From: Corallococcus coralloides DSM 2259
Lineage (GTDB): Bacteria; Myxococcota; Myxococcia; Myxococcales; Myxococcaceae
Assembly: GCF_000255295.1 (NCBI RefSeq)
Contig: NC_017030.1
Location: 496,001 to 560,000 of the forward strand
Length of the DNA stretch: 64,000 nt
Direction of reading: 5' to 3'
Shown: piece after piece, positions 1 to 15,470 of the stretch
Numbering within the stretch: the first letter of the stretch is position 1
Layout of the letters: each line of letters starts with the position of its first letter
Notes under the pieces: model-generated
The model's input: the letters and a program-made list of their open reading frames with translations, nothing else
Databases searched by the model: none
What the model was told of the DNA's origin: nothing
Translations under genes and position numbers: made by a program

Positions 1-644
1 TGTTCGAGAACGCCTTCATGGAGGCGGCCTCGAAGCTACACCCGGCGGTGCCGGTCCTCCTCTACATCCCGCTCACGCTGGGCCTGCTCGGGTGGGGCCT
101 GGCGGGGGGACGGACGACGGTGGGGCGGGCCCTGCTGTTCATCCCGCTGGGCCTGCTGACGTGGGTCGTCATGGAGTACTGCATCCACCGGTTCTTCTTC
201 CACTGGGAGGGCAAAGGCCCGCTCACCCGGCGGGTGCATGAGATTGCCCACGGCTACCACCACAAGTACCCGGACGACTCCCAGCGCCTGGTGATGCCGC
301 TCATCGTCACCATCCCGCTGTCCTCGCTCATCGGGGTGTCGCTGTGGTGGGTGGGCCGTCCGGCGGAGATGCTCCCGTACTTCGTGGGCATCGTCTGGGG
401 CTACGTGACCTACGACACCCTCCACTGGGCCACGCACCACCGCACGCCGCGCACGGCCTGGGGCAGGGCGCTGCGCGCGCACCACATGGCGCACCACTTC
501 GCGACGCCGGACCGCAACTTCGGCATCAGCAACCGGTGGATGGACACGCTGTTGGGCAGCGGCGGGCGGCGGCCCGAGCGCGCGGAGAAAGAAGCGTCAC
601 GCGGCGAGGCGCCTCCCAAGGAGGGCGCCGGCGTGAGACCCTGA
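1..644 (+). CDS. Fatty acid 2-hydroxylase, Scs7/FA2H type (5' end outside window)
   Basis: This is a membrane di-iron enzyme of the fatty acid hydroxylase/sterol desaturase superfamily. The reading frame is open to the left edge (residues FENAF precede the first ATG at 18), so the true start probably lies upstream. The histidine clusters are HRFFFH, HEIAHGYHHKYPDD followed by RLVMP, TLHWATHH and HHMAHHF followed by FGISN. The spacing and the HHKYP-x2-x3-RLVMP signature resemble the ceramide fatty acid 2-hydroxylases Scs7 and FA2H, without their cytochrome b5 domain. Hydrophobic segments lie between the clusters. The family hydroxylates C2 of acyl chains destined for sphingolipids. The stop is 2 nt from the stop of the convergent inositol-lipid operon, which suggests a shared role. 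Family assignment is strong; the substrate is inferred. Confidence 0.85.
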   Translation, partial: FENAFMEAASKLHPAVPVLLYIPLTLGLLGWGLAGGRTTVGRALLFIPLGLLTWVVMEYCIHRFFFHWEGKGPLTRRVHEIAHGYHHKYPDDSQRLVMPLIVTIPLSSLIGVSLWWVGRPAEMLPYFVGIVWGYVTYDTLHWATHHRTPRTAWGRALRAHHMAHHFATPDRNFGISNRWMDTLLGSGGRRPERAEKEASRGEAPPKEGAGVRP

Positions 645-646
645 CT

Positions 647-1228
647 TCAGGCCGCCTTCTCCGGCACGCCCGTCCACGCGGCCACGAAGTCCGCCAGTCC
701 GCGCAGCTGCCGGTCGTTGAGCGTTGCCTGCCAGCGCGCGTGGCGCACCGCCCGGTACGCCTCCGGCGCGTCCCAGCCGCGCGCCACCATCACCGCCAGG
801 CCCATCAGCGGCCCGCGCCCCACGCCGTGCTCGCAGTGCGCGTACAGCACGCCGCCCGCGTCCAGCCGGGGCAGCGCCCAGCGCACTCCTTGCGACAGCT
901 GCTCCACGGACGGCGGGTAGCGGTCCGTCACCGGCAGGCTGAGCAGCTCGATGCCCAGCGCCGCCAGCGCCTCGCGGTCGTCACAGCGCTCCGCGCGCAG
1001 GTCGATGACGCAGGTGATGCCCCGGTCCTTCAGCTCGCCGTAGCGCGCGCGGGACACGCTGCCGCCCACGTGCAGCCACGGGTTCACCTGGGACACGTTG
1101 AGGGCGCGCTTGCCGGGCAGCTTGGTGGTCCACTCCACCCCGCGCGCCACCACCCGCAGCACCTGCTTGCGCACGAACCCCCGGACCCCGGGGACGTGAT
1201 GCACCGACCGCAGCAACGACTCGCTCAC
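647..1228 (-). CDS. Dual-specificity phosphatase, PTPMT1-like
   Basis: This 193-residue cysteine phosphatase has the P-loop C122-E-H-G-V-G-R128 (HCx5R) and a likely general acid at D102 in LPVTDRYPP. An N-terminal stretch of about 45 residues precedes the catalytic domain. Compact phosphatases of this kind include PTPMT1, which removes the phosphate of phosphatidylglycerophosphate, and related enzymes acting on phosphoinositides. As the last gene of the operon with inositol-phosphate synthase and a CDP-alcohol phosphatidyltransferase, it could convert phosphatidylinositol phosphate to phosphatidylinositol; that is inference. It starts with GTG 19 nt after the preceding gene, with no strong ribosome binding site, so coupling is likely. 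A protein phosphatase role cannot be excluded. Confidence 0.8.
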   Translation of the reverse strand: MSESLLRSVHHVPGVRGFVRKQVLRVVARGVEWTTKLPGKRALNVSQVNPWLHVGGSVSRARYGELKDRGITCVIDLRAERCDDREALAALGIELLSLPVTDRYPPSVEQLSQGVRWALPRLDAGGVLYAHCEHGVGRGPLMGLAVMVARGWDAPEAYRAVRHARWQATLNDRQLRGLADFVAAWTGVPEKAA

Positions 1229-1247
1229 GCTGAGAACCCCTGCTCCG

Positions 1248-2243
1248 CTACTCGCCTTCCAACGTCACTTCCATCAACCCGTCCACCGGCGCCTTGCCCG
1301 GACGCTCCATCACGCCCCGGAGCAGGTACGTCACCGGCGAGCCCACCATCGGTCGCACCAGGCCGCTCAGCACCCCCAGCGACTCCACCGGCGCGCTGCG
1401 CTGGAGCAGCGACGTGCCCTTGAGCGTCACGGCCGGCTTGCCGTCGCGGTCGGTGAGCTCCGCCCGCCACGTGCTCTTCGCCTTCTCCCCCGTCTGCGTG
1501 AGCGTGAAGGACTCCAGGAGCTTCGCGGCCCCCTTGTCCTCCCAGACATACACGGGCGCGTAATCGCCCCCCTGGCCCTCGCGCCCCAGCACCACTGCGT
1601 ACGGCGGGCCCTTGATGGCGCGGAAGCGCACCCAGCGCTTCGCCAACTTCGCCGGCGCCACCGTGCTGCGCGAGTGGTCCGCGTAGCCGCCGCCCGACAG
1701 CGTCACCGCCTCCGTCTTGGGCACCTGGAGCGTCACCTTCACGGGGCTGCCGGCCACCAGCACCTCGTGGCGGTAGCGGTCCTTGCCTTCCTCCACCACG
1801 GAGCCGTCCGGCGACCACGGCTCGGGCTTGCGCGCGTACTCCAGCGTCACCCGGCCATTGTCCAACGCCGCGTCCACCGTCAGGCCCGTGTCCGAAGCCC
1901 GGGCGAGGCACGTGCCCACCTTCAACGTGTCCGTGGTCGCGGTGTAGCTCCACTCCTTCGCGCCCACGCGCGTCTGAGGCGCCCAGGCGGCCTTGCCCGG
2001 CCGCAGCACCGTGGCGCGGCAGATGCCCGTGCGCGACCCCGGGCCGATGTTCGTCACCGACAGGTTCACCGTCACGTAGGTGCCGTCTTCCGCATCCGCC
2101 ACGAAGGAGAAGCTCTCTCCGTACCGGTCGCTGGAGTCGAAGGACAACCCCAGCACGCCACCCGCAGCCGCCACCCCTGGAAGCGAAAGCAGGGCCCCCA
2201 CCAGCAGGGCCCTCAAGCCGCGGGCGCGCGTGTCACGCCGCAT
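1248..2243 (-). CDS. Exported protein of unknown function
   Basis: I do not recognise this 331-residue protein. It begins with a basic stretch and a hydrophobic segment (LLVGALLSLPGVAAAGG) that reads as a cleavable signal peptide, so a periplasmic or outer-membrane location is likely. The rest is soluble in character, alternates short hydrophobic strands with turns and looks beta-rich. It contains no membrane segment and no catalytic motif I can name. It overlaps the upstream phosphatidyltransferase gene by 11 nt and is followed by the phosphatase gene, so it belongs to the inositol-lipid operon. A role in lipid handling is conceivable but rests only on position. Confidence 0.7.
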   Translation of the reverse strand: MRRDTRARGLRALLVGALLSLPGVAAAGGVLGLSFDSSDRYGESFSFVADAEDGTYVTVNLSVTNIGPGSRTGICRATVLRPGKAAWAPQTRVGAKEWSYTATTDTLKVGTCLARASDTGLTVDAALDNGRVTLEYARKPEPWSPDGSVVEEGKDRYRHEVLVAGSPVKVTLQVPKTEAVTLSGGGYADHSRSTVAPAKLAKRWVRFRAIKGPPYAVVLGREGQGGDYAPVYVWEDKGAAKLLESFTLTQTGEKAKSTWRAELTDRDGKPAVTLKGTSLLQRSAPVESLGVLSGLVRPMVGSPVTYLLRGVMERPGKAPVDGLMEVTLEGE

Positions 2244-3474
2244 GGGGCCGCTGCTCCATGAGCTCGTCCGAGTTGTCGTTGAAGACGTAGTCGCGCTGCA
2301 GCGGCAGGTTCCACGCGAAGTACACGACGCCGCGCACCAGCCACCAGCCCAGCGTGTACGCCAGCTGCGGGTGCAGCGTGAGCAGCGCCACGCCGCCCGC
2401 GTTGAGCAGCGCGCTGGTCGCGCTCACCAGCGTGTAGCGCGCCAGCTGCGGCGCCACCGCCCCCTGGCTGCGGAAGGTGATGACCCGGTTGAGGGTGTAG
2501 TTCACCACGCCGCCCAGCACGCAGCCGGCCACCGTGGCCCACACCGGGGAGAGGCCTCCCCACTCCACCATGCCCAGCACCGCCACGAAGTCCACCGCCG
2601 TGGCGATGGCGCCCGCCGCCGCGTTGAAGCCGAACAGCGCCACGCCCGAGCGCTGCTTCACCGGCTTCTTGGGCGTCAGGGCCCGCACCAGCGTGCGGAA
2701 GCGCGCCAGCGCCGTGACGTTGCTCAGCACGGCCACGAAGACCAGGCCCGCCACCGCCAGCCAGTGCATGGGGTGCTTCTCCGTCGGCCAGAACAGCGCC
2801 TCCAGGATGGGCGACAGCGCCGTGCCCACGCCCAGGAACAGCACCCGCTCCAGCCGCTGCATCGCGCCGTCGCGCACGCTCACGCCCAGGCCCTCACCCT
2901 TGGCGCGCACGTACGGCACCAGCGAGGAGCCCATCAGCGCGCCCAGCGCGGGCAGCAGCACCCAGGTGTCCCGGTAGTACCAGGCCAGGCCCATCAGGAT
3001 GGCGGAGTCCACGTACCGGTCCAGCACGGAGTCCAGCGCCGCGCCCGCGGGGTTCGCCTCCTTGCGGGTGCGCGCCACGCGGCCGTCCATCACGTCCAGC
3101 ACGCCCGCGAAGAGGAACAGCCAGCCGCCCAGCGCGAAGCGGCCCGCCGCCACCGCCACGCCGGACGACACGCCCAGCAGGCCCGACAGCATGGACAGCG
3201 CGTTGGCCGGCAGGCCCGAGCGCAGGAGCACCCGCCACAGCGGCTGGATGACCCAGAAGAAGTAGTGGCGCAGGAAGAAGCCCACCAGCACCGACTTGCC
3301 GCGCGTCAGCGTCTCCGCGTCCCGGGGAATGCCCTTGATGGCGCAGCGGATACAGAAGAGCACCAGGCCCACGAGGAAGTACGCGACCGCGAACAGCGCG
3401 GGCGCGAGCGCGGTCCAGATGCGCGCCGAGGGGGACAGGTCTCCACTCAGCAAGGCCAGCACGTTGTCAGGCAC
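2233..3474 (-). CDS. CDP-alcohol phosphatidyltransferase fused to a GtrA domain
   Basis: This 413-residue polytopic membrane protein has two domains. The N-terminal part carries the complete CDP-alcohol phosphotransferase signature D127-x2-D130-G-x2-A134-R135-x8-G144-x3-D148-x3-D152, which binds metal and CDP-diacylglycerol. From about residue 290 to 405 it resembles GtrA, a four-helix family linked to translocation of lipid-linked sugars (it includes NYTLNRVITF). Given the neighbouring inositol-phosphate synthase, the likely reaction is CDP-diacylglycerol plus inositol phosphate giving phosphatidylinositol phosphate. The acceptor is inferred and could be another alcohol. It starts with GTG after a GGAGGG site with 7-nt spacing, overlaps the PAP2 gene by 8 nt and the exported-protein gene by 11 nt. 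Confidence 0.88.
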   Translation of the reverse strand: MPDNVLALLSGDLSPSARIWTALAPALFAVAYFLVGLVLFCIRCAIKGIPRDAETLTRGKSVLVGFFLRHYFFWVIQPLWRVLLRSGLPANALSMLSGLLGVSSGVAVAAGRFALGGWLFLFAGVLDVMDGRVARTRKEANPAGAALDSVLDRYVDSAILMGLAWYYRDTWVLLPALGALMGSSLVPYVRAKGEGLGVSVRDGAMQRLERVLFLGVGTALSPILEALFWPTEKHPMHWLAVAGLVFVAVLSNVTALARFRTLVRALTPKKPVKQRSGVALFGFNAAAGAIATAVDFVAVLGMVEWGGLSPVWATVAGCVLGGVVNYTLNRVITFRSQGAVAPQLARYTLVSATSALLNAGGVALLTLHPQLAYTLGWWLVRGVVYFAWNLPLQRDYVFNDNSDELMEQRPHAA

Positions 3475-4402
3475 GGGTGTTCCCTCCAGACGGCAGGGTC
3501 ATGGGCGCCATCCCTGGCGCTTCCACGGCCCGTCTTGCGAAGACAGCCCTCACGACCACGAAGGCCGCGACCGCCGCGATGCTTCCCGCGAGCACGTCGA
3601 GGACGTAGTGGTGCGTGAGATACACGGCGGAAAAAGCGACGAGCAGCGCGAACAGGATGGTGCCCACCCGCCACGCGAGGCCCTTGTGCCACAGGACGAG
3701 CACCATCATCAGCGGGTAGGCCGCGTGCAGTGACGGCATGGCCCCGAAGACGTTGGGGTTCTTGGCGTAGAAGTTCGCGAAGTAGTGGATGCCGAAGAAG
3801 GCATCGAAGCGCGCGGTGCCCGCGGGGCTGGGCGGCGCCGACAGGTCCGCGAGTCCCGGCCCGTACTTCAGCACGTACCAGGGGGGAGCCGCGGGGTAGA
3901 TCACATAGGTGACCACACCGATGGCGTTCACCACGAAGAAGGCCCAGCACAGCTGTTCGAATCTCGCGTCCTTCTTGAAGAAGAACCACAGCGCCACGAG
4001 GAAGACCTCGTAGAGGTAGGCCGCGTAGGCCCAGCCGCACAGCAGGTCCAGCGGCGTGTTGGGGTGACGCGACCACCACTCGGGCCAGTGCGTGCCGCCC
4101 GGGGCGGGGAACAGCAGCTTCTCCAGGTTCCACAGGTCGCCGGTGTGGATGGTGCCGCGCAGCCCCAGCCACAGCGGCTGGCTGTCCAGGATCATACCGG
4201 TGAGCCACAGCGGGAACGCGCCGCGGAGGAACCGCCGCGGGCCGGCGCCGGCCCAGGCCAGCACCACCAGCAGCAGGTCCGCCGCGACGTGCTCCCACCG
4301 GACTCTTCCGGTGGAGACCACCAGCGCGAAGTGGCCCGCCGCCATGACGGTGACGAGCCACTTGAACGCGGAGTCGTTCTTAGCGGGCGAGAGGGAGGTC
4401 AT
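3467..4402 (-). CDS. PAP2-superfamily membrane enzyme, Aur1-like inositolphosphotransferase candidate
   Basis: This 311-residue membrane protein has about six hydrophobic segments. PAP2 motifs are present: a YPAAPPWY segment near residue 169, GAMPSLH with H226 as candidate catalytic residue, and YLTHHYVLD with H264/H265 and D269. The pairs GAxPSLH and YLTHHYxxD are very close to those of fungal Aur1, inositol-phosphoceramide synthase, and less like simple PAP2 phosphatases. Aur1 moves phosphoinositol from phosphatidylinositol to ceramide. Position directly after inositol-phosphate synthase (23-nt overlap) supports an inositol-lipid substrate. The alternative is a lipid phosphatase acting on phosphatidylinositol phosphate. 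Family call is firm; the reaction is inferred. Confidence 0.85.
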   Translation of the reverse strand: MTSLSPAKNDSAFKWLVTVMAAGHFALVVSTGRVRWEHVAADLLLVVLAWAGAGPRRFLRGAFPLWLTGMILDSQPLWLGLRGTIHTGDLWNLEKLLFPAPGGTHWPEWWSRHPNTPLDLLCGWAYAAYLYEVFLVALWFFFKKDARFEQLCWAFFVVNAIGVVTYVIYPAAPPWYVLKYGPGLADLSAPPSPAGTARFDAFFGIHYFANFYAKNPNVFGAMPSLHAAYPLMMVLVLWHKGLAWRVGTILFALLVAFSAVYLTHHYVLDVLAGSIAAVAAFVVVRAVFARRAVEAPGMAPMTLPSGGNTRA

Positions 4403-5714
4403 CCCCGTAGTAGTCCATCCCCAGGTGAGTGATGGGCTCTTCGCCCGCGACGACGCGCAGCGTGTTCTTCAGCTTGGTCAGCTGGATGAACAGGTCGTGC
4501 TCCACCGGCAGGCCCGGGTGGGCCATGGGGCTCTTGAAGTAGAAGGACATCCACTCCTGGATGCCCCGCCACTCCAGCCGCTTCGCCAGGTCCATGAACA
4601 GCGCGATGTCCAGGACCAGCGGCGCCGCCAGGATGGAGTCGCGGCAGAGGAAGTTGACCTTGATCTGCATCGGGTAGCCCAGCCACCCGGTGATGTCGAT
4701 GTTGTCCCAGCCCTCCTTCGCGTCGCCGCGGGGCGGGTAGTAGTGGATCGACACCTTGTGCGAGTACTTGTTGTACAGCTCCGGGTACAGGTCCGGCTGC
4801 AGGATGGTGTCGAGCACGCTCGACTTGGTCACTTCCTTGGCCTTGAAGGCCTGCGGATCATCCAGCACCTCGCCGTCGCGGTTGCCCAGGATGTTGGTGG
4901 AGAACCACCCCTCCAGGCCCAGCATGCGCGCCTTGAGCGCGGGCGCGATGACCGTCTTCATCATCGTCTGGCCGCTCTTGAGGTCACGGCCCGCGACGGG
5001 CACGCCCTCCAGCTTCGCCAGCTCCTGCAGCGCGGGCGTGTCCACGGCCGCGTTCGGCGTCCCGTTGGCGAACGGCACGCCTTCCTTGATGGCCGCGTAG
5101 GTGTAGAGCGCCGTGGGGTTGATGTCCGTGCTGTTGGCGTCCAGCGCCTTCTCGAAGTTGGCCAGCGTCTGGAAGGCCTCCGGCAGCGGGCGGAAGGTCT
5201 CCACGCTGCTGCACACCACCATCACGGCGCGCTTGGCGTTGAGCTCCTTCTTGAAGTCCCGGATGTCCTGGCGCAGCGCTTCAATGCTCTCGCGGTGCGT
5301 CTTGGTGGCCTTGATGTGGTTCGCGGCGATACGGCGCACGAACTCCGGATCATGCACGCCCGGCTTCGGCTTGATGCCCTGGAGGAAGGGCTTCACCTGC
5401 TCCAGGTGCTTGTCGGTCAGCACGCCCGAGCGCACGGCCACCTGGTAGGCGTCCTCGCTGATGATGTCCCACGCGCCGAAGACGACGTCGTCCAGCGTGG
5501 CCAGCGGCACCAGCTCGTTGAGCTTCACGGTGCGGCCGTCGGTGCGCTTGCCCAGGCGGGCCGTGCCCATCTGCGTGAGCGAGCCAATGGGGGCACCCTT
5601 GCCCTGCCGCGCCAGCTCCACACCCGCCATCAGCGTGGTGGAAACCGCGCCCAGGCCCGGGATGAGCACCGCCAGCTTGCCCTCGGGCTTCGCGACCTTC
5701 TTCTTATTCTCCAT
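4380..5714 (-). CDS. ino1: myo-inositol-1-phosphate synthase (inositol-3-phosphate synthase)
   Basis: This enzyme converts glucose-6-phosphate to inositol phosphate using bound NAD, the first step of inositol synthesis. The 444-residue protein has a glycine-rich Rossmann start (LIPGLGAVSTTLMAG) and the segment GRDLKSGQTMMKT followed by NILGNRDG and K-rich motifs. These correspond to the conserved GxDxKSGQT and NHLGNNDG blocks of the eukaryotic-type enzyme. I chose the ATG at 5714 (MENKKK) because AGGA elements precede it; a longer in-frame start at 5792 has no support. It heads a minus-strand operon whose next gene overlaps it by 23 nt. It supplies the head group for the lipid enzymes downstream. 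Confidence 0.92.
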   Translation of the reverse strand: MENKKKVAKPEGKLAVLIPGLGAVSTTLMAGVELARQGKGAPIGSLTQMGTARLGKRTDGRTVKLNELVPLATLDDVVFGAWDIISEDAYQVAVRSGVLTDKHLEQVKPFLQGIKPKPGVHDPEFVRRIAANHIKATKTHRESIEALRQDIRDFKKELNAKRAVMVVCSSVETFRPLPEAFQTLANFEKALDANSTDINPTALYTYAAIKEGVPFANGTPNAAVDTPALQELAKLEGVPVAGRDLKSGQTMMKTVIAPALKARMLGLEGWFSTNILGNRDGEVLDDPQAFKAKEVTKSSVLDTILQPDLYPELYNKYSHKVSIHYYPPRGDAKEGWDNIDITGWLGYPMQIKVNFLCRDSILAAPLVLDIALFMDLAKRLEWRGIQEWMSFYFKSPMAHPGLPVEHDLFIQLTKLKNTLRVVAGEEPITHLGMDYYGDDLPLAR

Positions 5715-5832
5715 CGTCCTGATTCCTTCGAATGGCGGGAAATCGCTCCGCCCAATGAGCGTCTCCGAGTCCGTTCCATCCGGCGCCGGCAAAAATGCCG
5801 GACGGAAGGTGGAAAATCTCGAAAGCGGATGG

Positions 5833-5861
5833 TTGATACTCTAAACCGTCTGTCACTTCAA
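5833..5861 (-). promoter_or_regulatory. Candidate sigma70-type promoter for ino1
   Basis: Read on the minus strand, TTGAAG (-35, plus coordinates 5856-5861) is followed after 17 nt by TATCAA (-10, 5833-5838), each matching consensus at four of six positions. It would give a leader of about 110 nt. Found by eye only. Confidence 0.35.
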
Positions 5862-6143: not shown

Positions 6144-6665
6144 TCAGTTGTGGCGGGGGGCGCCCCGGTCGAGCTTCTGGTTGTCTCCCGGGTGGTACTT
6201 GTCTCCGGTGAGGACGGCTTTCACGAACCCGACCAGCTGGACCATCTTGCTGTTGGGTGTGTCCCAGTACTCGGCCTTCTCGACGGAGACGCGCAAGAGC
6301 GCCAGGTTCGGATCATCCAGCCCCTGGGGGAACCAGGCCTTGAGGGCGGGGTTCCACAGCTCCTTGGCCTTGGCCTTGTCGTGGATCAGCGTGCAGCGGC
6401 CGCTGACGGACACGTACCGGTCCCGGGTGGGGTCCGAGTAGGCGAGGCTGACATGGTGGTCCTTCTGCACCTCGTCCACCTTATGGGTGTGGTCGTTGGT
6501 GAAGAACCACAGCTCTCCGTCGAAGTCCTTGTCGTAGGTCCACATCGGCCGGCTGCGCAGGCTGCCGTCGGTGTCCACGGTCGTCATCATCGCGACCTTG
6601 ATGCCGTGGATGAGCTTGCCCAGGTGCTCCACCACGTCCTGCGGAGTCTTCGTCGTCGTCGTCAT
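6144..6665 (-). CDS. Pyridoxamine 5'-phosphate oxidase-fold protein, general stress protein type
   Basis: This 173-residue protein has the split-barrel flavin-binding fold of the PNPOx-like superfamily. Visible features are an N-terminal helix, the strand MMTTVDTDGSLRSRPM, WFFTNDHTHKVDE and the paired strand VSLAYSDPTRDRYVSVSG. This layout matches general stress protein 26-like proteins, which bind FMN or F420 and are usually not pyridoxine enzymes. The start at 6665 (MTTTTK) is set by GGGAGG seven nt upstream; the longer frame to 6740 has no such site. It appears monocistronic. The substrate is unknown. Confidence 0.85.
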   Translation of the reverse strand: MTTTTKTPQDVVEHLGKLIHGIKVAMMTTVDTDGSLRSRPMWTYDKDFDGELWFFTNDHTHKVDEVQKDHHVSLAYSDPTRDRYVSVSGRCTLIHDKAKAKELWNPALKAWFPQGLDDPNLALLRVSVEKAEYWDTPNSKMVQLVGFVKAVLTGDKYHPGDNQKLDRGAPRHN

Positions 6666-6832
6666 GTGCTCGCCTCCCTTGGGGGTTGAAGGTAGGCAGC
6701 GGCCGGGGAGCGAACATCGTCCGTACCGCCGGGTCGGCACCCCGGCAGCCGGGCGTGTGATAGGGGGCGTGCCGGGCCCTCTCGCTTGTTTCGTCCTTTG
6801 GAACGAGGCGTGACGGCCGGGAGCGACAAGGG

Positions 6833-7330
6833 ATGCTGAAGACCGCGTGGAACGAGTGGAGCCTGAAGGCGCTGCAGCTGGAGACGGCCCTGCTGGCGCT
6901 GGAGGAGATTGAGCTGCCGGACGCGATGCACGCGCTCCAGGACGCGGCCCAGCAGAAGCTGCTGGAGCTGGCGCGGGCGTGGCAGAAGACGCAGCCCGCG
7001 AAGGAGCCGCGCCAGTGGACGCGCGAGGAGAAGGCGGGCGGCGCGCCTCGCGACGAGGAGCTGGCGGACCTGGTGAAGGGCTTCCGCGAGGACGGCAAGA
7101 CGTGGACGCTCTACCGCCTCACCAGCGACAAGAAGGAAGTGGTGGAGACGGTGGTGTCCGAAGGGCGCGCGTGCATGGCGGCCGGCGGCGAGTACTACCT
7201 GGGCCAGTGGGACGCGGAGGAGGGCGTGCTGGAGGTGGGGCGCGACGACGAGGCCGGCGAGCCCGGCACCGGGCTGGTGCTGGAGCCGGGCGGCGAGCTG
7301 CGCTACTCGCCGTCTCCGGACCTGACGTAG
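6833..7330 (+). CDS. Hypothetical acidic protein
   Basis: I do not recognise this 165-residue protein. The first 50 residues look alpha-helical and rich in Leu, Ala and Glu; the middle is charged (RQWTREEKAGG); the C-terminal half looks beta-rich (WTLYRLTSDKKEVVETVVSEG, then YYLGQWD). It has no signal peptide or membrane segment, so it is probably cytoplasmic. GGGAG lies about 15 nt before the ATG, so the start is uncertain. It stands alone, divergent from the pyridoxamine-oxidase-fold gene and convergent with the aldo/keto reductase gene 10 nt away. Confidence 0.65.
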   Translation: MLKTAWNEWSLKALQLETALLALEEIELPDAMHALQDAAQQKLLELARAWQKTQPAKEPRQWTREEKAGGAPRDEELADLVKGFREDGKTWTLYRLTSDKKEVVETVVSEGRACMAAGGEYYLGQWDAEEGVLEVGRDDEAGEPGTGLVLEPGGELRYSPSPDLT

Positions 7331-7340
7331 TCCGCGCGGA

Positions 7341-8267
7341 TCAGGACTCGAAGAGCTTCACCATCCTCGCGCGCAGCTTCTCGTCGGGGAGCCGTCCGAA
7401 GCCCGCCTTCACGTTGTCCTCCAGGTGGGCGGGGTCGGAGGTCGCGGGGATGGGGCAGTTCACGGCGGGGTGGCCCAGGATGAACTTGAGGAAGAACTGG
7501 GCCCAGCTCGTGCAGTCGAACTCCGAGGCCCAGTCCGGCAGGGGACGGCCCTTCATCTTGCGGAAGAGGTTGCCCTTGTCGAAGGGCTCCATGACGAGCA
7601 CGGCCACGCCGTGCTCCTTCGCCGCGGGCAGGAGGCGCGCTTCGGCGTCGCGCATCGCGAGCGAGTAGGGCAGCTGCACGAAGTCCAGCTTGCTGCCCTG
7701 GATGTGCTTCTCCAGGTCGTCGAAGGCGCTGCGCAGGTAGTGGGTGACGCCCACGTAGCGGATCTTCTTCGCGGCCTTCAGCTCCCGCAGCACGGGCAGG
7801 TGCACGTCCACGTCCAGCAGGTTGTGCACCTGCATCAGGTCCATGCGGCCGTGGCCCATCTTCTGGAGGGACGCCTGTATCTGCGCCGCCCCTTCCGCCT
7901 TGCCGCGCGTCCAGACCTTGGTGGCGAGGAACGGGGTCTTCTCCTGGCCGGACTGCTTCAGCAGGTCGCCCACGACGGCCTCGGAGCGGCCGTACATGGG
8001 GGACGAGTCGATGAGGCGCGCGCCCGAGGCGAAGAACTTCTGGAGGACCTGGGCCAGGGGCGCGCGTTCGTTCGCGGCGCCGCCGACGTCGAAGGTCTGC
8101 CAGGTGCCCATGCCGATGACGGGCAGGGCTTCGCCGGAGCTGGGGATGGGGCGGGTGAGCATGCGGGGACTCTGGGCGAGGGCGGAGAGGGACGGCGCGA
8201 GCGCGGCGCCGATGCCCGCCACCAGGACCTCGCGGCGGGAAGGGTGGGGAGGACGGGACGGGCGCAT
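7341..8267 (-). CDS. Tat-exported aldo/keto reductase
   Basis: This 308-residue NADPH-dependent oxidoreductase has the aldo/keto reductase tetrad: Asp and Tyr in LIDSSPMYGRSE, Lys in FLATKVW and His in MQVHN. The N-terminus has a twin-arginine element (SRREVLVAG) followed by a hydrophobic stretch ending ALAQS, so Tat export of the folded, cofactor-loaded enzyme to the periplasm is likely. The ATG at 8267 is chosen because the signal peptide begins there; the frame stays open far upstream without homology. It is divergent from the surface-repeat gene. The substrate is not predictable. Confidence 0.85.
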   Translation of the reverse strand: MRPSRPPHPSRREVLVAGIGAALAPSLSALAQSPRMLTRPIPSSGEALPVIGMGTWQTFDVGGAANERAPLAQVLQKFFASGARLIDSSPMYGRSEAVVGDLLKQSGQEKTPFLATKVWTRGKAEGAAQIQASLQKMGHGRMDLMQVHNLLDVDVHLPVLRELKAAKKIRYVGVTHYLRSAFDDLEKHIQGSKLDFVQLPYSLAMRDAEARLLPAAKEHGVAVLVMEPFDKGNLFRKMKGRPLPDWASEFDCTSWAQFFLKFILGHPAVNCPIPATSDPAHLEDNVKAGFGRLPDEKLRARMVKLFES

Positions 8268-8393
8268 GGGGGAAGCGTAGCGGCGAAGGAGCGCCGGACA
8301 CCGGGCTTGGTGAGAGGTGAAGACGGGCAGGTGACAGTTCTGGAAGGCCGCGGTGTTCCCTTCGCCGAATCCTTTTTCAGGAAGGTCCAGGCG

Positions 8394-9821
8394 ATGAAGC
8401 GCAAGGTCGCGGTGTGTGTCGGGGTGATGGTCGCGGTGGCGGCGGGAGCGGCCGGGGCCGAGGAGCGGACGGAAGGCGCCGCCGCTCCGGAGTCGCACTC
8501 CGCCCCCGTGCAGGAGGCACCGGCGCCCACGGCCGTCGCGATTCCTGTCGCGGCGCTGTCTCCCGCGCCGCTCGTGGAGGCCGCGACGGGCGGTGAGCCC
8601 GCGCGGCCCGCGGGGACCACCGTGGCTCGGCAGCGCTCGGACACGGAGGAGATCCACGTTCCGGTGGTGCTGATGGCCCTGCCGCACGTGAGCACGGCGG
8701 GCACGGCCACGGAGCGGCTGGTGACCACGTTCGCGCTGGGTGCGCTCGCGACGCATGCGAAGCGGGTGGATGGCGCGGCCATGTCCCTGGGCGCGAACTG
8801 GGTGGGCGAGGACTTGTCCGGCGTGCAGCTGACGCTCGGGGCCAACGTGGTGCGCGGCACCGCGTCCGGCGCGCAGTTCGCCGTGGGCGGCAACATCGTC
8901 ACGGGCGACCTGGAGGGACTCCAGTCCGCGGTGGGCCTCAACGTGGTGAAGGGCGCGGCGGTGGCCGGCCAGCTCGCCGTGGGTGGCAACGTGGCGGGCG
9001 GCGCGCTGTCCGGAGGCCAGTTCTCCGTGGGCGCCAACATCGCGGGCTCGGGCGGCGTGGGGGCCCAGTTCACGGTGGGCGCGAACATCGCGACCGCGCA
9101 GTTCAAGGGTGCGCAGTTCGCGGCGGGCGCGAACCTCGCCTCGACGATGTCGGGCCTCCAGGCCTCCTCGGGCTTCAACTACGCGGGCCGGATGGATGGC
9201 GCGCAGCTGTCGCTCCTCAACGTGGGCGGGGACGTGTCCGGCGCGCAGGTGGGGTTGATCAACGTCGCGGGCAGGGTGGACGGTCTCCAGCTGGGGCTGA
9301 TCAACGTCGCGCGTGAGTCCCAGGGCGAGGCGCTGGGTCTGCTCAGCTTCATCGGCAACGGCCAGGCGAACCTGCAGCTGTGGGCCAGCGACCTCGCGTA
9401 CACCAACGTCGCGGTGAAGTTCGGCGGCCGGCACTTCCACACGCTGCTGACGCTGGGCTTCAACCCGGGCACGGACACGCACCGCCGCCGTTACGTGGGA
9501 GGCCTGGGCTTTGGCGCGCACATCCCCGCGGGGCCATTGTTCTTCGACCTGGATGTCATTGGCAGCAGCGTCCACGCGGACAACCTCTTTCGGGATGGCG
9601 ACGGCCTGAACGTGCTGGGACAGTTGCGGCTGGTGGCGGGCTGGCAGGTGGCGAAGCGGTTCGCGCTCATCGGCGGCGTCACCGGCAATACGCTCGTGAC
9701 CTGGGACAACGGGGACCGCTGGGAGGAGCTGGGCATCGGGCCGGAGTGGCGCAGCGTCTCCGACGGGGGACGCACCACCGTGCGGGTGTGGCCGGGCGTC
9801 CTGCTGGGCGTGCAGATCTGA
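8394..9821 (+). CDS. Surface-repeat protein, LA_2272-like
   Basis: This 475-residue protein starts with a signal peptide (hydrophobic to AAGAEE), a Pro/Ala-rich linker to about residue 85, then roughly fifteen imperfect repeats of 18-20 residues with the pattern G-x-Q-[LF]-x-[VL]-G-x-N-[IV]-x-x-G. The last copies read GLQLGLINVA. The regular spacing of Gly, Gln and Asn suggests a beta-solenoid or stacked beta-strand surface. This pattern resembles the LA_2272-type surface repeat described in Leptospira. The C-terminal 130 residues are beta-rich and may form a barrel or anchor. AGGAAGG precedes the ATG at slightly long spacing. The next gene, a head-GIN lipoprotein 33 nt on, may be co-transcribed. 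Function unknown. Confidence 0.75.
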   Translation: MKRKVAVCVGVMVAVAAGAAGAEERTEGAAAPESHSAPVQEAPAPTAVAIPVAALSPAPLVEAATGGEPARPAGTTVARQRSDTEEIHVPVVLMALPHVSTAGTATERLVTTFALGALATHAKRVDGAAMSLGANWVGEDLSGVQLTLGANVVRGTASGAQFAVGGNIVTGDLEGLQSAVGLNVVKGAAVAGQLAVGGNVAGGALSGGQFSVGANIAGSGGVGAQFTVGANIATAQFKGAQFAAGANLASTMSGLQASSGFNYAGRMDGAQLSLLNVGGDVSGAQVGLINVAGRVDGLQLGLINVARESQGEALGLLSFIGNGQANLQLWASDLAYTNVAVKFGGRHFHTLLTLGFNPGTDTHRRRYVGGLGFGAHIPAGPLFFDLDVIGSSVHADNLFRDGDGLNVLGQLRLVAGWQVAKRFALIGGVTGNTLVTWDNGDRWEELGIGPEWRSVSDGGRTTVRVWPGVLLGVQI

Positions 9822-9854
9822 CACGGCATTCGATTCGAAGTTCGGGAGGGGAAC

Positions 9855-10697
9855 ATGTGGAAGCGTTTGGGAGTCGCCGCGCTCGCGGCGGGGCTGCTGT
9901 CCGGCTGCTACTTCACCGATGAGATGCAGGGCGACGGCAACACCGTCACGGAGTCGCGCGTGGCGACCGACTTCTCCACCGTGGAGAACCGGGGCTCGAT
10001 GGAGGTGGTGATTCGCGAGGGCGAGGTGCCGGACGTGAAGGTCACGCTGGATGAGAACCTCCAGCACCGCGTGCGCACCTTCGTGTCGCCCGGCAACACG
10101 CTGGTCATCGAGACGGACGGCTCGTTCGCGCCCCGGGGCCCGGCGCGGGTGGAGATCCTCGTGCCGCGCATGATTGGCGCGACGCAGGACGGCTCCGGCT
10201 CCCTGCGCGTGGAGGGCTTCGAGCGGGTGAAGGAGGACGTGAAGCTGGTGGCGAAGGGCTCCGGCTCGCTGAGCTTCTGCGGCGGGGTGCGCACCCTGGA
10301 GGCGAAGCTCAGCGGCTCCGGGAACATGGAGCTGTGCGCGGCCGGTGAAGGCCTGGCCGAGTGGGTGGACCTGTCGCAGTCCGGCTCCGGCGACCTGAAG
10401 TTCGAGGGGGCCGCGAAGCATGTGCGCACCCGGACGGACGGCTCCGGCTTCACGACGCTCAAGGGCGTCACCAACCGGCTCGACGCCTGGCTGGACGGCA
10501 GCGGTGGCCTCGGGGCCCCGGGCCTCCGGGCCGTGGACGTGAACATCACGTCGAAGGGCTCTGGCACCGTCGCCGCGTACGTGGACGGGGGCGGGGCGGT
10601 CATCCTGCTCGACTCGTCGGGGAACGTGGACCTGTATGGCCATGCCCTGTCGACCCAGCTCCGGGTCAACGGCAGCGGTCGGGTCATCTGGCACTGA
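9855..10697 (+). CDS. Head-GIN domain lipoprotein (DUF2807 family)
   Basis: The 280-residue product has a lipoprotein signal peptide ending in the lipobox LLSGC, so it is anchored in a membrane. The mature part resembles the DUF2807 head-GIN family, a right-handed beta-helix with recurring GSG turns; I see GSGSL, GSGNM, GSGDL, GSGFT and GSGRV at regular spacing. The family is often annotated as putative autotransporter adhesin, but its function is not established. A good GGAGGGG site precedes the ATG. It probably forms a pair with the upstream repeat protein, 33 nt away. Confidence 0.85.
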   Translation: MWKRLGVAALAAGLLSGCYFTDEMQGDGNTVTESRVATDFSTVENRGSMEVVIREGEVPDVKVTLDENLQHRVRTFVSPGNTLVIETDGSFAPRGPARVEILVPRMIGATQDGSGSLRVEGFERVKEDVKLVAKGSGSLSFCGGVRTLEAKLSGSGNMELCAAGEGLAEWVDLSQSGSGDLKFEGAAKHVRTRTDGSGFTTLKGVTNRLDAWLDGSGGLGAPGLRAVDVNITSKGSGTVAAYVDGGGAVILLDSSGNVDLYGHALSTQLRVNGSGRVIWH

Positions 10698-10749
10698 CTA
10701 GCTTGTCCTCGACACCCGTGACGTGCGCGGGTGGGGAGGCAGGCGGGCC

Positions 10750-11751
10750 ATGGCGGCGACCATGCGGGCGATGGTGCTCCACGCACCCGGACAGCGCCTG
10801 CGGCAGGAGGAGCGGCCCCTTCCGGAGCCCGGGCCGGAGCAGGTGCTGTTGAAGGTGCACGCCTGCGCGGTGTGCCGCACGGACCTGCACGTGGTGGACG
10901 GAGAGCTGACGCGCCCGAAGCTGCCGCTGGTGCCGGGCCACGAAATCGTGGCCACGGTGGTGGCGACGGGCGCGAAGGTGGAGGGCCTGACCGCAGGGCT
11001 GCGCGTGGGGGTTCCGTGGCTGGGATGGAGCTGCGGGCAGTGCCGCTTCTGCCGCTCCGGCCGGGAGAACCTCTGCGACACGGCGCGCTTCACCGGCTAC
11101 GACATCGACGGGGGCTTCGCGGAGTACACCGTCGCGGATGCGCGCTTCTGCTTCCCACTGCCGCCGTCGTACCGCGACGTGGAGGCCGCGCCGCTGATGT
11201 GCGCGGGGCTCATCGGCTTCCGCAGCCTGCGCATGGCGGGAGACGGCCCCCGGCTGGGGCTGTATGGCTTTGGCGCCGCCGCGCACATCCTCATCCAGGT
11301 GGCGCGGCACCAGGGGCGCCGCGTGCATGCCTTCACGCGCGAGGGTGACGCCAAGGGCCAGGCCTTCGCGCGGGAGCTGGGCGCGGTGTGGGCGGGAGGC
11401 TCGGACACGCCGCCGCCGGAGCCGCTGGACGCGGCCATCCTCTTCGCTCCCGTGGGCGCGCTGGTGCCCGCGGCGCTGAAGGCCGTGGACAAGGGCGGCG
11501 TGGTGGTGTGCGGCGGCATCCACATGAGCGACATCCCGTCCTTTCCCTATTCGGTGTTGTGGGAGGAGCGCGTGGTGCGCTCGGTGGCGAACCTCACGCG
11601 GCAGGACGCGATGGACTTCCTGGCGTTGGCGCCGCGAGTGCCGGTGCGCACGGAGGTCCAGATGTTTCCCCTGTCCGCCGCGAACGAAGCGCTCCAGGCC
11701 CTGCGCGAAGGCCGCGTGCGAGGGGCCGCGGTCCTGGACATGGCGGAGTAG
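10750..11751 (+). CDS. Zinc-dependent alcohol dehydrogenase (MDR family)
   Basis: This 333-residue cytoplasmic enzyme oxidises alcohols or reduces aldehydes with NAD(P). Catalytic zinc ligands lie in CAVCRTDLHVVDGEL and PGHEIV. The structural zinc site has four cysteines in SCGQCRFCRSGRENLC. The Rossmann segment is GLYGFGAAAHILIQVA. The length is normal for the family. I chose the ATG at 10750 because GGGGAGG lies about ten nt upstream; a GTG at 10723 has no such site. It is followed by an unrelated gene on the same strand. Confidence 0.9.
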   Translation: MAATMRAMVLHAPGQRLRQEERPLPEPGPEQVLLKVHACAVCRTDLHVVDGELTRPKLPLVPGHEIVATVVATGAKVEGLTAGLRVGVPWLGWSCGQCRFCRSGRENLCDTARFTGYDIDGGFAEYTVADARFCFPLPPSYRDVEAAPLMCAGLIGFRSLRMAGDGPRLGLYGFGAAAHILIQVARHQGRRVHAFTREGDAKGQAFARELGAVWAGGSDTPPPEPLDAAILFAPVGALVPAALKAVDKGGVVVCGGIHMSDIPSFPYSVLWEERVVRSVANLTRQDAMDFLALAPRVPVRTEVQMFPLSAANEALQALREGRVRGAAVLDMAE

Positions 11752-11846
11752 GGCCGCGCTGGAGCGAGTGCCCGCGCGCCTGTCCGCCTGGATGCTTCGA
11801 ACACGGGGGAATGCACAGCTTTCGCGGCACGGAGGCTGTGCACCTC

Positions 11847-12473
11847 ATGAAAGCGCTTCAGGAGACGGGACCGTTCGAAGGGTATGACTCGGAGATCCAC
11901 CCGCTGGGCTCGTATGGCGTCTTGATAGGGACCTTCAGCACGACCGTGCTGGGCTTCCTGGGCTGGATGGGAGCCTCAGGGCGGCGCCTCCCCGAGCGCT
12001 TCAGCGGCAGCGACCTGGCGCTGTTCGGGGCCGCCACGCACGTCGTCACCCGGGTGGTGGCGGCGGACAAGGTCACGGCGGTGGTGCGCGCCCCGTTCAC
12101 GCGCTTCAAGGGCAACGCCAGCGCGGGCGAGGTGAGCGAGCAGGCCCGGGGCACGGGGTTCCGTCACGTGATGGGTGAGCTGCTGGACTGCCCCTTCTGC
12201 CTGAGCCCGTGGGTGGCCGCGTCCTTCCTCATCTCCGCCACGGTGCGCCCCCGGCAGACGCGCTTCGTGGCCTCCATCTTCGCCCTGAGCGGCGCGTCCT
12301 TCTTCCTCCACCGGGCCTATGAGTTGCTGGGCGAAGGGCTGCATCGCACCCGCGCGCAGGCGCGGCTGCTGCACAAGGAGCAGGAGAAGCAATCCGATGC
12401 GGGCGTGCAGTTCCCCGGTCGTGGGCCGCAGGTCGTCGAGCCCGGCCGCGCCCCCATTCCGTCTCCGAGTTGA
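11847..12473 (+). CDS. DUF1360 family membrane protein
   Basis: About 208 residues. The diagnostic segment is LLDCPFCLSPWVA, a cysteine pair in a membrane context typical of DUF1360 proteins (related to sporulation-associated membrane proteins in Bacillus). Hydrophobic segments occur near GVLIGTFSTTVLGFLGWMG, ALFGAATHVVTRVV and WVAASFLISATV, with a polar C-terminal tail. The start at 11847 is supported by GGAGG 11 nt upstream; an in-frame ATG at 11811 is the alternative. No function is known for the family. Confidence 0.75.
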   Translation: MKALQETGPFEGYDSEIHPLGSYGVLIGTFSTTVLGFLGWMGASGRRLPERFSGSDLALFGAATHVVTRVVAADKVTAVVRAPFTRFKGNASAGEVSEQARGTGFRHVMGELLDCPFCLSPWVAASFLISATVRPRQTRFVASIFALSGASFFLHRAYELLGEGLHRTRAQARLLHKEQEKQSDAGVQFPGRGPQVVEPGRAPIPSPS

Positions 12474-12548
12474 AGCGAGGCCGATTCACCGTGAGTCACT
12501 GAGCCGCGTCTCTGGCAATGGCTCGCGGGGCCGCGTCGTAATCCGGGC

Positions 12549-13955: not shown

Positions 13956-14111
13956 GTCAACGTGCCCCATGCCGCGGGGCGCGTGTCCCGTCATGCCCCG
14001 TCAAAAGGGGGCCGTTATAGGTGTTTCGTGGGCCCGCAACGTTGGCCGGGCTCATGCAAAGCCTTGAATCCACACCGGCTCCAGAGCACGGAGCCCTACC
14101 CGAGGCAGACG

Positions 14112-14447
14112 ATGAAGCGCGCACTGCGAATCACCTACCGGGGCATGGAGACGAGCGACACCCTCAACGAGCACATCCGCGATCAGGCGGACAAGCTGGA
14201 GCAGTTCTACGACGGCATCACCGGCTGCAACGTGGTGGTGGAGGAGCCGCACCGCCACCACGCCCAGGGGCACCACTTCCACGTGCGAGTGGAGCTGCAC
14301 GTGCCGGGCAGGGACATCATCGCGGACCGGGAGCCGGCGGAGCTCGCGGCCCATGCGGATGCCTACCAGGCCGTCACCGACGCCTTCGAGGCCGCGCGGC
14401 GCCAGCTGCAACACCACGCGGACCGCCAGCACGCGTACCACCGCTAG
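14112..14447 (+). CDS. Ribosome hibernation/association factor, HPF/RaiA family
   Basis: This 111-residue protein has the HPF/RaiA beta-alpha fold pattern: LRITYRGMETSDTLNEHIRD for the first strand and helix, then NVVVEEP, HFHVRVELHVPGRDIIAD and a C-terminal helix AYQAVTDAFEAARRQLQHH. Members bind the 30S decoding region and silence or protect ribosomes in stationary phase. It is the short form without the dimerising C-terminal domain. It has an unusual number of histidines (HRHHAQGHHFH and the C-terminus). GAGG lies six nt before the ATG. It appears monocistronic. Confidence 0.87.
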   Translation: MKRALRITYRGMETSDTLNEHIRDQADKLEQFYDGITGCNVVVEEPHRHHAQGHHFHVRVELHVPGRDIIADREPAELAAHADAYQAVTDAFEAARRQLQHHADRQHAYHR

Positions 14448-15331: not shown

Positions 15332-15470
15332 GGCGCGCGGATGTCCTGCGTTGATCGGATGGGCGCGGGAGCGTGTCTGACGTTGGACGTCCCCAGGGGA
15401 GGGTGGTTGGCGCGGTGGAGGCGTCTGGGATTGGCTCCGCGCGCTTTTTCCATTCGCGAGGCAACCGCCC

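What the first reader, a model, noticed from the sequence alone, without database searches (positions are those of the whole stretch)
1..5861. Candidate inositol-phosphoceramide biosynthesis island in a myxobacterium
Seen: a fatty acid 2-hydroxylase of Scs7/FA2H type, and a five-gene operon with eukaryotic-type inositol-phosphate synthase, an Aur1-like PAP2 enzyme (GAMPSLH and YLTHHYVLD), a CDP-alcohol phosphatidyltransferase with complete signature, an exported unknown protein and a PTPMT1-like phosphatase. Known: in fungi, Ino1, Pis1, Aur1 and Scs7 supply inositol, make phosphatidylinositol, make inositol-phosphoceramide and hydroxylate its acyl chain. Inference: the locus encodes an entire route, with phosphatidylinositol phosphate as intermediate dephosphorylated by the phosphatase. 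A single bacterial locus for this set would be notable.
Basis: partly seen in the sequence, partly recalled or inferred. Interest (0 to 1): 0.78.

Follow-up and report, generated by a model that had tools for sequence, protein, structure and literature searches.

The report
Myxobacterial inositol-sphingolipid operon with lipocalin
A Corallococcus operon carries the head-group half of a yeast-like pathway for inositol sphingolipids, and its "unknown" exported protein looks like a relative of the yeast ceramide carrier Svf1, which makes a bacterial sphingolipid-handling system testable.

Summary
The five genes at 647-5714 (-) are real, tightly packed and conserved: in 53 of 54 family-f1 genomes holding the set, the AUR1-like and exported-protein genes lie about 2.2 kb apart. 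The pathway reading holds: MIPS nearest Bacteroides BT_1526, a transferase with the PIP-synthase motif, a synthase matching yeast AUR1 over most of its length, and a phosphatase. The kind is known (BT_1522-1526; ceramide phosphoinositol is reported from Myxococcus xanthus). The window is not an entire route: ceramide-backbone candidates lie 4.9 Mb away and the Scs7-like hydroxylase is adjacent in 16 of 54. But relative G049 holds the whole proposed route in 9.5 kb.

New here: the exported protein is predicted as a two-domain lipocalin; 13 of 24 family members, though not the window's own, hit Pfam Svf1_C, the yeast ceramide-carrier family. In 12 genomes it is fused to PIP synthase-GtrA. The phosphatase slot holds DSP, PgpA or HAD enzymes. 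Best reading: cytosolic PI synthesis, periplasmic IPC synthesis, lipocalin as lipid carrier. Against: G049 has no lipocalin match. Activities and carrier role are inferred.

The parts
1..644 (+). Scs7/FA2H-type fatty acid 2-hydroxylase, 5' end cut by the window edge (gene may begin 37 bases left of base 1); convergent with the operon; a facultative neighbour, not part of the operon
   Evidence: PF04116 60 bits; the two PDB matches at E <= 0.1 are yeast SCS7, E 2.6e-16 and 5.2e-16; histidine boxes HRFFFH, HEIAH, HWATHH, HHMAHH; near the operon in 16 of 54 genomes
647..1228 (-). Dual-specificity-type (cysteine) phosphatase without a hydrophobic segment; candidate PIP-lipid phosphatase
   Evidence: HCEHGVGR at residue 131, no hydrophobic segment; DSP-PTPase Pfam families; close orthologues (E < 1e-80) in 54 of 195 genomes, exactly the 54 that hold lipocalin and PAP2 in family f1
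1248..2243 (-). Exported two-domain lipocalin of the AttH/CrtC/Svf1 type; candidate periplasmic lipid carrier (or lipid-modifying enzyme)
   Evidence: N-terminal hydrophobic segment; AF2 pLDDT 90.8, pTM 0.90; Foldseek top 24 rows and VIA Z 18.9-23.1 over 266-289 of 304 residues; Svf1_C in 13 of 24 family members scanned, not in this one
2233..3474 (-). PIP synthase (CDP-alcohol phosphotransferase, residues 90-219) fused to GtrA (residues 286-398)
   Evidence: Pfam; NCBIfam archaetidylinositol-phosphate synthase, PIPSynBT1523 and PIP synthase models rank first, all below their cut-offs; PIP synthases are the best PDB matches, E 6.9e-17; complete motif
3467..4402 (-). AUR1-like inositol-phosphoceramide synthase (PAP2_3)
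   Evidence: Profile hits AUR1 E 5.8e-29 over positions 14-284 of 309; AF2 pLDDT 86.3; AUR1 VIA Z 24.5 over 291 residues, next LpxE 16.8 over 163; PAAPPWY, GAMPSLH, YLTHHYVLD
4380..5714 (-). myo-inositol-3-phosphate synthase, first gene of the operon
   Evidence: PF07994 and PF01658; best PDB match 7nwr, E 7.5e-143, which is Bacteroides BT_1526

Best explanation
The operon makes the head group of inositol sphingolipids and helps to move the lipids. In the cytosol MIPS turns glucose-6-phosphate into inositol phosphate; the CDP-alcohol transferase joins it to CDP-diacylglycerol (or an ether analogue) to give PIP; the cysteine phosphatase removes the phosphate to give PI. The GtrA domain fused to the transferase is proposed to help PI (or PIP) reach the outer leaflet. 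The AUR1-like enzyme, whose active site by analogy with the Golgi-lumen enzyme faces the periplasm, moves inositol phosphate from PI to ceramide. The exported Svf1-like double lipocalin carries one of the hydrophobic partners (ceramide, PI, IPC or released diacylglycerol) in the periplasm. Ceramide comes from a separate locus. Shown: gene identity, motifs, predicted folds, fusions and conserved order. Inferred: every activity, the membrane sides, flipping, and the carrier role. My odds: IPC pathway 0.9 (raised from 0.85 after the G049 locus was found on re-checking); phosphatase acts on PIP 0.7; lipocalin is a lipid carrier 0.45.
For: AUR1 match over most of the chain in sequence and fold. MIPS nearest BT_1526. 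PIP-synthase motif and NCBIfam PIPS models. Lipocalin, PAP2 and close DSP orthologues occur together in 54 f1 genomes; PAP2 and lipocalin starts are 2027-2342 nt apart in 53, lipocalin and DSP within 1.5 kb in 54; PIPS-GtrA in the same genomes; all 54 have the SPT candidate. Outside f1, SPT lies within 16 kb of PIPS in 6 of 18 SPT genomes and of PAP2 in 4; in G049 PIPS, HAD phosphatase, AUR1-like synthase, MIPS, hydroxylase, SPT, GNAT and an NAD-epimerase follow one another. PIPS-GtrA-lipocalin single frames in 12 genomes. In G018 the gene beside that fusion is MMPL fused to PgpA, the family of the tested Bacteroides PIP phosphatase BT_1525, and a MIPS lies near; no PgpA match in the window's own genome. 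Ceramide phosphoinositol is reported from M. xanthus (sentence in PMC9246714). Svf1 as a ceramide carrier: PMC10583516 passages.
Against: Deleting the GtrA gene BT_1524 left inositol lipids unchanged by TLC, so GtrA may have another job. G049, with the whole proposed route in one locus, shows no lipocalin match and no GtrA hit beside PIPS, so neither is indispensable. The lipocalin is fused to the PI side, not to the AUR1-like enzyme, so ceramide need not be its cargo. The best fold neighbours include enzymes. The window's own lipocalin does not itself hit Svf1_C. Nine f11/f12 genomes have lipocalin matches but no PAP2 match. The PAP2 protein scores 136.6 bits against a cut-off of 480 for the NCBIfam synthase model, and a small tree did not resolve it. 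Two small genomes (G144, G145) keep MIPS, PAP2 and PIPS-GtrA without an SPT match at 1e-100.
Confidence: 0.74

Rival explanations
1. The exported lipocalin is an enzyme that alters the lipid (isomerase, hydratase or lyase, like other proteins of this fold), not a carrier.
For: Nearest solved folds include Diels-Alderase-type pericyclases, kievitone hydratase and 25-phosphosteroid lyase. Polar residues are invariant or nearly so across the 24 aligned members: E16, N38, D26 and D162 in mature numbering.
Against: More members hit Svf1_C (13 of 24), a binding-protein family, than CrtC (3 of 24). Some conserved residues may be structural. In G049, where no lipocalin is matched, an MlaC gene, another periplasmic lipid-binding family by recall, overlaps the start of PIPS.
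Confidence: 0.3
2. The locus makes phosphatidylinositol (perhaps ether PI) and the PAP2 enzyme uses an acceptor other than ceramide.
For: G144 and G145 keep MIPS, PAP2 and PIPS-GtrA but have no SPT match at E <= 1e-100. Dialkyl-ether inositol phospholipids are reported for Stigmatella (passage of PMC1586193).
Against: All 54 full-operon genomes have the SPT candidate; SPT is clustered with PAP2 in G040, G041, G042 and G049; AUR1 is the closest fold, with a clear gap; ceramide phosphoinositol is reported from M. xanthus.
Confidence: 0.08
3. The DSP is a protein phosphatase and the PIP phosphatase lies elsewhere.
For: Its solved relatives include protein phosphatases (PRL types, DUSP23); the genome has a second, weaker DSP relative.
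Against: Close orthologues (E < 1e-80) occur in exactly the 54 operon genomes; a weaker relative lies 5 kb from PAP2 in G144 and G145; the same neighbourhood holds PgpA in G018 and HAD phosphatases in G040 and G049; no PgpA match in the genome.
Confidence: 0.25
4. One reading: in this organism one locus holds a complete route to 2-hydroxylated inositol phosphoceramide.
For: The hydroxylase is Scs7-like, is near the operon in 16 of 54 genomes, and starts within 1 kb of the SPT start in G049 and G189 and 3.6-4.6 kb in G045-G047. In G049 a complete locus of this kind exists.
Against: In the window's genome the SPT candidate is 4.87 Mb away; the hydroxylase is not found in 29 of the 54 operon genomes and is present in genomes without the operon.
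Confidence: 0.04

Closest known systems
Bacteroides thetaiotaomicron inositol-lipid cluster BT_1522-BT_1526 (Heaver et al. 2022, PMC9246714; abstract, outline, section 6 and passages seen)
   Same: MIPS, PIP synthase, AUR1-like PAP2 synthase, GtrA protein and a lipid-phosphatase slot, with PIP as intermediate
   Different: GtrA is fused to PIP synthase here; a DSP phosphatase stands in place of PgpA; an exported Svf1-like lipocalin has been added, which is not among the five BT genes described in the parts seen
Yeast AUR1 inositol phosphorylceramide synthase (PDB 9ivc, 9vj3, 9vj4)
   Same: Fold over most of the chain; PAAPPWY, GA.PSLH and YLTHHY..D motifs
   Different: 24% identity or less; no Kei1 partner was sought; acceptor specificity unknown
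Yeast Svf1 (lipocalin-type ceramide transfer protein; PMC10583516 passages)
   Same: Two lipocalin domains; Pfam Svf1_C hit by 13 of 24 family members; works beside an AUR1-type synthase
   Different: Svf1 is cytosolic/Golgi-surface, this one is exported; fused to PI synthesis in 12 genomes; cargo unknown; the window protein itself has no Svf1_C hit
AttH / CrtC-type proteins (PDB 2ich)
   Same: Two-domain lipocalin fold, VIA Z 21.4 over 279 residues
   Different: 12% identity; separate gene family (a CrtC protein lies elsewhere in the same genome)
Mycobacterial-type PIP synthase (PDB 6wm5, 6h53)
   Same: Motif D..DG..AR...G...D...D and core homology
   Different: Extra N-terminal segment and a C-terminal GtrA domain; different lipid context
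Scs7/FA2H ceramide acyl 2-hydroxylase (PDB 4zr0, 4zr1)
   Same: Histidine boxes and core
   Different: Only FA_hydroxylase found by Pfam; facultative neighbour

Membership tests
Bacteroides-type inositol-sphingolipid cluster | MIPS, PIP synthase and AUR1-like synthase in one cluster | tested here: met
Bacteroides-type inositol-sphingolipid cluster | PgpA-type PIP phosphatase | tested here: not met
   no PgpA match in the whole genome; a DSP gene occupies the operon. PgpA is found in the cluster of the relative G018
Bacteroides-type inositol-sphingolipid cluster | GtrA protein in the cluster | tested here: met
   as a C-terminal fusion, PF04138
Bacteroides-type inositol-sphingolipid cluster | Cells make PI and phosphoinositol ceramide | not testable with these tools
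   reported for M. xanthus by citation only
AUR1 / IPC synthase | Catalytic H...H...D motifs and PAAPPWY | tested here: met
   the matched stretches of the two other PAP2_3 proteins of the same genome lack all three motifs as searched
AUR1 / IPC synthase | Homology and fold over most of the chain, beyond the shared PAP2 core | tested here: met
AUR1 / IPC synthase | Curated NCBIfam cut-off of the Bacteroides synthase model NF052609 | tested here: not met
   136.6 against 480 bits: related, not the same equivalog
AUR1 / IPC synthase | Clusters with AUR1 in a tree against other PAP2 proteins | tested here: inconclusive
   171-column tree; deep nodes unresolved; of the two other PAP2_3 proteins one joins AUR1 and one a bacterial relative, each at UFBoot 61
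Svf1/CrtC/AttH two-domain lipocalins | Two-lipocalin-domain fold | tested here: met
   predicted model
Svf1/CrtC/AttH two-domain lipocalins | Recognised by family sequence models | tested here: inconclusive
   of 24 members (window included) 13 hit Svf1_C (best 6.5e-6) and 3 CrtC (best 3.5e-5), at a reporting limit of E <= 1; the window protein hits neither; hhalign of the 24-member profile against CrtC E 7.7e-6, best of 30 shuffles 0.043; with the narrower A2 profile E 0.018
Svf1/CrtC/AttH two-domain lipocalins | Binds ceramide (Svf1) | not testable with these tools
   needs binding assays
PIP synthase | Motif D..DG..AR...G...D...D | tested here: met
   window and the 12 fusions
FA2H/Scs7 hydroxylase | Histidine boxes and homology to Scs7 | tested here: met
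PTPMT1 | Closest to PTPMT1 among solved cysteine phosphatases | tested here: not met
   5z59 protein-tyrosine phosphatase (2.4e-9) and ShufPTP (1.9e-8) rank above PTPMT1 (1.2e-6)

The most novel reading that the evidence does not exclude
Bacteria have their own Svf1-Aur1 pair: an exported Svf1-family lipocalin, coupled to PI synthesis (physically, by fusion, in 12 genomes), hands ceramide or PI to a periplasmic AUR1-like synthase or passes its product on. Svf1-, AUR1- and Scs7-type proteins would then be an old, shared kit for making inositol sphingolipids rather than a fungal invention.
Probability: 0.3. Interest if true: 0.78.

Novelty: new variant of a known kind. Interest (0 to 1): 0.6.

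Why it matters
It gives candidate genes for a lipid already reported from Myxococcus xanthus, in a genetically tractable phylum, and shows a relative in which the whole proposed route to a hydroxylated inositol sphingolipid sits in one 9.5-kb locus. It points to a missing part of bacterial sphingolipid biology: how ceramide or PI meets a synthase in the periplasm and how the product is moved. It suggests that the PIP-phosphatase step has been filled several times by unrelated enzymes. If the Svf1 relationship holds at the level of function, a eukaryotic ceramide-transport idea becomes testable in a bacterium.

Tried and rejected
Sequence searches for the lipocalin that found no lipocalin: PDB with the single protein, with alignment A1 and with A3; Pfam with the window protein alone gave only DUF11 at 0.012. 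The lipocalin idea was written down before the model came back.

The first profile comparison with CrtC proteins used an alignment polluted by wrong strands; the corrected one with the narrow alignment A2 was not significant (hhalign probability 2.5, E 0.018); only the wider alignment A3 gave probability 84, E 7.7e-6.

A PAP2 tree with a yeast AUR1 fragment and stretches of the two other PAP2_3 proteins of the genome did not resolve: L107 joins AUR1 (0.83 FastTree, 61 UFBoot), L108 joins the bacterial relative L037 (61 UFBoot), and deep supports are 15-62. I rely on motifs, profile and fold instead. The first two IQ-TREE runs gave no tree (in 102 the message was a thread setting).

Rejected: ordinary PAP2 phosphatase (LpxE/PgpB profile E about 2e-4 against 5.8e-29 for AUR1); a complete single-locus route in this genome; hydroxylase as an operon member.

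The GNAT protein is called ceramide-synthase-like, and the NAD-epimerase beside SPT in G049 a possible ceramide reductase, from recall and position; NCBIfam gave no name to the GNAT protein and ranked other epimerase models, below their cut-offs, for the other. Lorenzen et al. 2014 is not held, so its result rests on the citing sentence in PMC9246714.

Prior description of the myxobacterial operon: searches; I looked at the listings and at passages of three of the papers they listed (PMC9246714, PMC1586193, PMC11334938) and saw none. One search for Svf1, AttH, CrtC and lipocalin (three of four) listed no paper.
Full report
What is there. The window lies at 496001-560000 of a 10.08 Mb single-contig genome. 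Its nearest named relatives are Corallococcus records, so the organism is a Corallococcus or very near one. On the minus strand, in reading order: MIPS (4380-5714), AUR1-like PAP2 (3467-4402), PIP synthase fused to GtrA (2233-3474), an exported protein (1248-2243) and a cysteine phosphatase (647-1228). A fatty-acid hydroxylase (to 644) runs towards them on the plus strand and is cut by the window edge.

Enzyme identities. MIPS is closest in the PDB to 7nwr (E 7.5e-143; next 9e-61), the Bacteroides enzyme BT_1526 (data statement of PMC9246714). The transferase carries D..DG..AR...G...D...D and is closest to solved PIP synthases; NCBIfam ranks the archaetidylinositol-phosphate, BT1523 and PIP synthase models first, all below their cut-offs. 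Heaver et al. used the same motif to assign BT_1523 (section 6 of PMC9246714). The PAP2 protein matches AUR1 at 2.7e-20 alone and 5.8e-29 as a profile (17 sequences) over positions 14-284 of 309, against about 2e-4 for LpxE and PgpB. Its model (pLDDT 86.3) matches AUR1 with Z 24.5 over 291 residues and 24.3 over 274; the next row is LpxE, Z 16.8 over 163. PAAPPWY is present in yeast AUR1 and in 14 of the 15 bacterial sequences that I chose to align, window included (the other has P.APPWY), and absent from the matched stretches of the two other PAP2_3 proteins of the same genome. A tree of these did not resolve.

The exported protein. The window protein has no informative Pfam or PDB sequence match. 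From its sequence I guessed a lipocalin of the AttH/CrtC/Svf1 type and noted this before the test. AlphaFold2, with 19 sequences (window and 18 of the 28 loci), gave pLDDT 90.8 and pTM 0.90. The first 24 Foldseek rows (E 1e-10 to 1.1e-6) are AttH 2ich, Diels-Alderase-type pericyclases, kievitone hydratase and 25-phosphosteroid lyase; that these form one superfamily is recalled. VIA-align gives Z 18.9-23.1 over 266-289 of 304 residues for these and 8.3 for the next row. Of 24 members scanned one by one (window included; chosen from the 83 genomes with a match), 13 hit Pfam Svf1_C (best 6.5e-6), 3 CrtC (best 3.5e-5) and 1 Svf1_N (0.039), at a reporting limit of E <= 1; the window protein is not among them. 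A profile comparison of the 24 with myxobacterial CrtC proteins gives E 7.7e-6; the best of 30 column shuffles gives 0.043 and the reversed profile 0.4. With the narrower profile it was not significant (E 0.018). Svf1 is described as a two-lipocalin ceramide transfer protein acting between ER and cis-Golgi (passages of PMC10583516), and Aur1 converts the delivered ceramide to IPC (passages of PMC11594620).

Fusions. In 12 of 195 Myxococcota genomes the transferase and the lipocalin lie in one open frame of the same length: G018 and 11 genomes of family f2 (of the 12 with handles G019-G030). Reading the sequences, 10 are complete and two run off the contig end; all 12 keep the PIP-synthase motif. 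In G018 the neighbouring gene is MMPL fused to PgpA, and a MIPS lies beyond the AUR1-like gene; a mycobacterial-type origin of that MIPS is my reading of its first residues, not a test. In G040 a HAD phosphatase lies between lipocalin and GtrA.

Conservation. Of 195 genomes: PAP2 78 (E <= 1e-10), lipocalin 83 (1e-5), PIPS-GtrA 106 (1e-10), SPT candidate 89 (1e-100), hydroxylase 98 (1e-12). Close orthologues of the phosphatase (E < 1e-80; the next match is 1.3e-29) occur in 54, all family f1. Recounted by script: these are the same 54 f1 genomes that have the lipocalin, and all have PAP2 (three more f1 genomes have PAP2 without lipocalin); PAP2 and lipocalin starts are 2027-2342 nt apart in 53, and in G081 they are on different contigs, near contig ends; lipocalin and phosphatase are within 1.5 kb in all 54. 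All 54 have the SPT candidate. Ten genomes of genera g3 and g6 have it but lack PAP2, lipocalin and PIPS-GtrA matches. The named loci show the same order in Corallococcus, Citreicoccus, Myxococcus including M. xanthus AM003, Pyxidicoccus and Hyalangium.

The rest of the route. In this genome an SPT candidate at 5,367,447 scores 509.5 bits for NF047600 (cut-off 640) on a partial frame. Beside it are a GNAT protein, an MMPL transporter, MlaC and a second PAP2_3 protein. The hydroxylase is within 2.5 kb of the operon in 16 of 54 genomes (12 of 16 g1, 3 of 7 g7, 1 of 1 g8), elsewhere in 9 and not found in 29.

SPT and these genes together. Outside f1, 18 genomes have the SPT candidate. Within 16 kb of it lie PIPS in 6 (G040, G041, G042, G043, G049, G157), PAP2 in 4 (G040, G041, G042, G049), lipocalin in 3 (G040, G041, G157) and hydroxylase in 5 (G045, G046, G047, G049, G189); 8 of the 18 show none. 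In G049 (L054, a 3.5 Mb genome rated 87% complete) one stretch, 6534-16079, holds MlaC, PIP synthase, HAD phosphatase, AUR1-like synthase (212.5 bits for NF052609), MIPS, FA_hydroxylase, SPT (481.8 bits for NF047600), the GNAT protein and an NAD-epimerase. It has no lipocalin match and no GtrA hit; the MlaC gene overlaps the start of PIPS there, which may be another way to supply a periplasmic lipid carrier (inference).

Mechanism. The model in the best explanation follows from established roles of the families; the membrane sides are inferred from AUR1 (recalled: its active site faces the Golgi lumen) and from the export signal of the lipocalin. Against a simple story: BT_1524 (GtrA) could be deleted without change in inositol lipids by TLC, the lipocalin is fused to PI synthesis rather than to the AUR1-like enzyme, G049 does without it, and nine f11/f12 genomes have lipocalin matches without PAP2 matches.

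Novelty. The pathway kind is known from Bacteroides, and ceramide phosphoinositol is already reported for M. xanthus. The variant is new in its Svf1-like lipocalin, in the PIPS-GtrA and PIPS-GtrA-lipocalin fusions, in the exchange of phosphatase families and in the G049 locus; I saw no paper on it in the searches named under Tried and rejected. On re-checking I raised the odds of the IPC pathway (0.85 to 0.9), the overall confidence (0.72 to 0.74) and the interest (0.56 to 0.6), and lowered the other-acceptor rival (0.12 to 0.08), because of the SPT linkage and G049.

Noticed in passing
L054:6534-16079 (G049): One 9.5-kb locus with MlaC, PIP synthase, HAD phosphatase, AUR1-like synthase, MIPS, fatty acid hydroxylase, SPT, GNAT protein and NAD-epimerase: by family a whole route to inositol phosphoceramide, without lipocalin.
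   Followed up: partly
L043:3824-6829 (G018): MMPL transporter fused to PgpA in one 1002-aa frame next to the PIPS-GtrA-lipocalin fusion: a lipid phosphatase tied to a lipid exporter.
   Followed up: partly
L104:4500-11900 (G000:C1 5363.5-5370.9 kb): Sphingolipid-backbone candidate locus: SPT, GNAT protein, MMPL transporter, MlaC and a second PAP2_3 protein without the AUR1 motifs; possibly another ceramide head-group enzyme and an export route. The GNAT gene also accompanies SPT in L054, L143-L146 and L148.
   Followed up: partly
L038, L039 (G144, G145): Small genomes (2.1-2.7 Mb) with MIPS, PAP2 and PIPS-GtrA and a weak DSP relative nearby, but no lipocalin and no SPT match at the thresholds used. 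Which acceptor the PAP2 enzyme uses there is open.
   Followed up: no
L062:9899-13736; L065: In family f2 an MMPL transporter and a class-III aminotransferase lie between the PIPS-GtrA-lipocalin fusion and the AUR1-like gene (families tested on L062; similar layout in L065); the aminotransferase hints at a further head-group change.
   Followed up: no
L093: A record titled Comamonas sp. KCTC 72670 carries the whole Myxococcus-like operon; the title or the assembly is probably wrong.
   Followed up: no
window 6144-6740: A pyridoxamine-phosphate-oxidase-like gene lies upstream of MIPS on the same strand in most f1 loci looked at; meaning unknown.
   Followed up: no
L118 (G000:C1:9229246-9229773): A true CrtC-family protein, also two-lipocalin by family, is encoded elsewhere in the same genome.
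   Followed up: partly
L129-L131, L139 (family f11): More distant relatives of the lipocalin in f11 and f12 genomes (G002-G010), none of which has a PAP2 match; a wider role of the family is possible.
   Followed up: no
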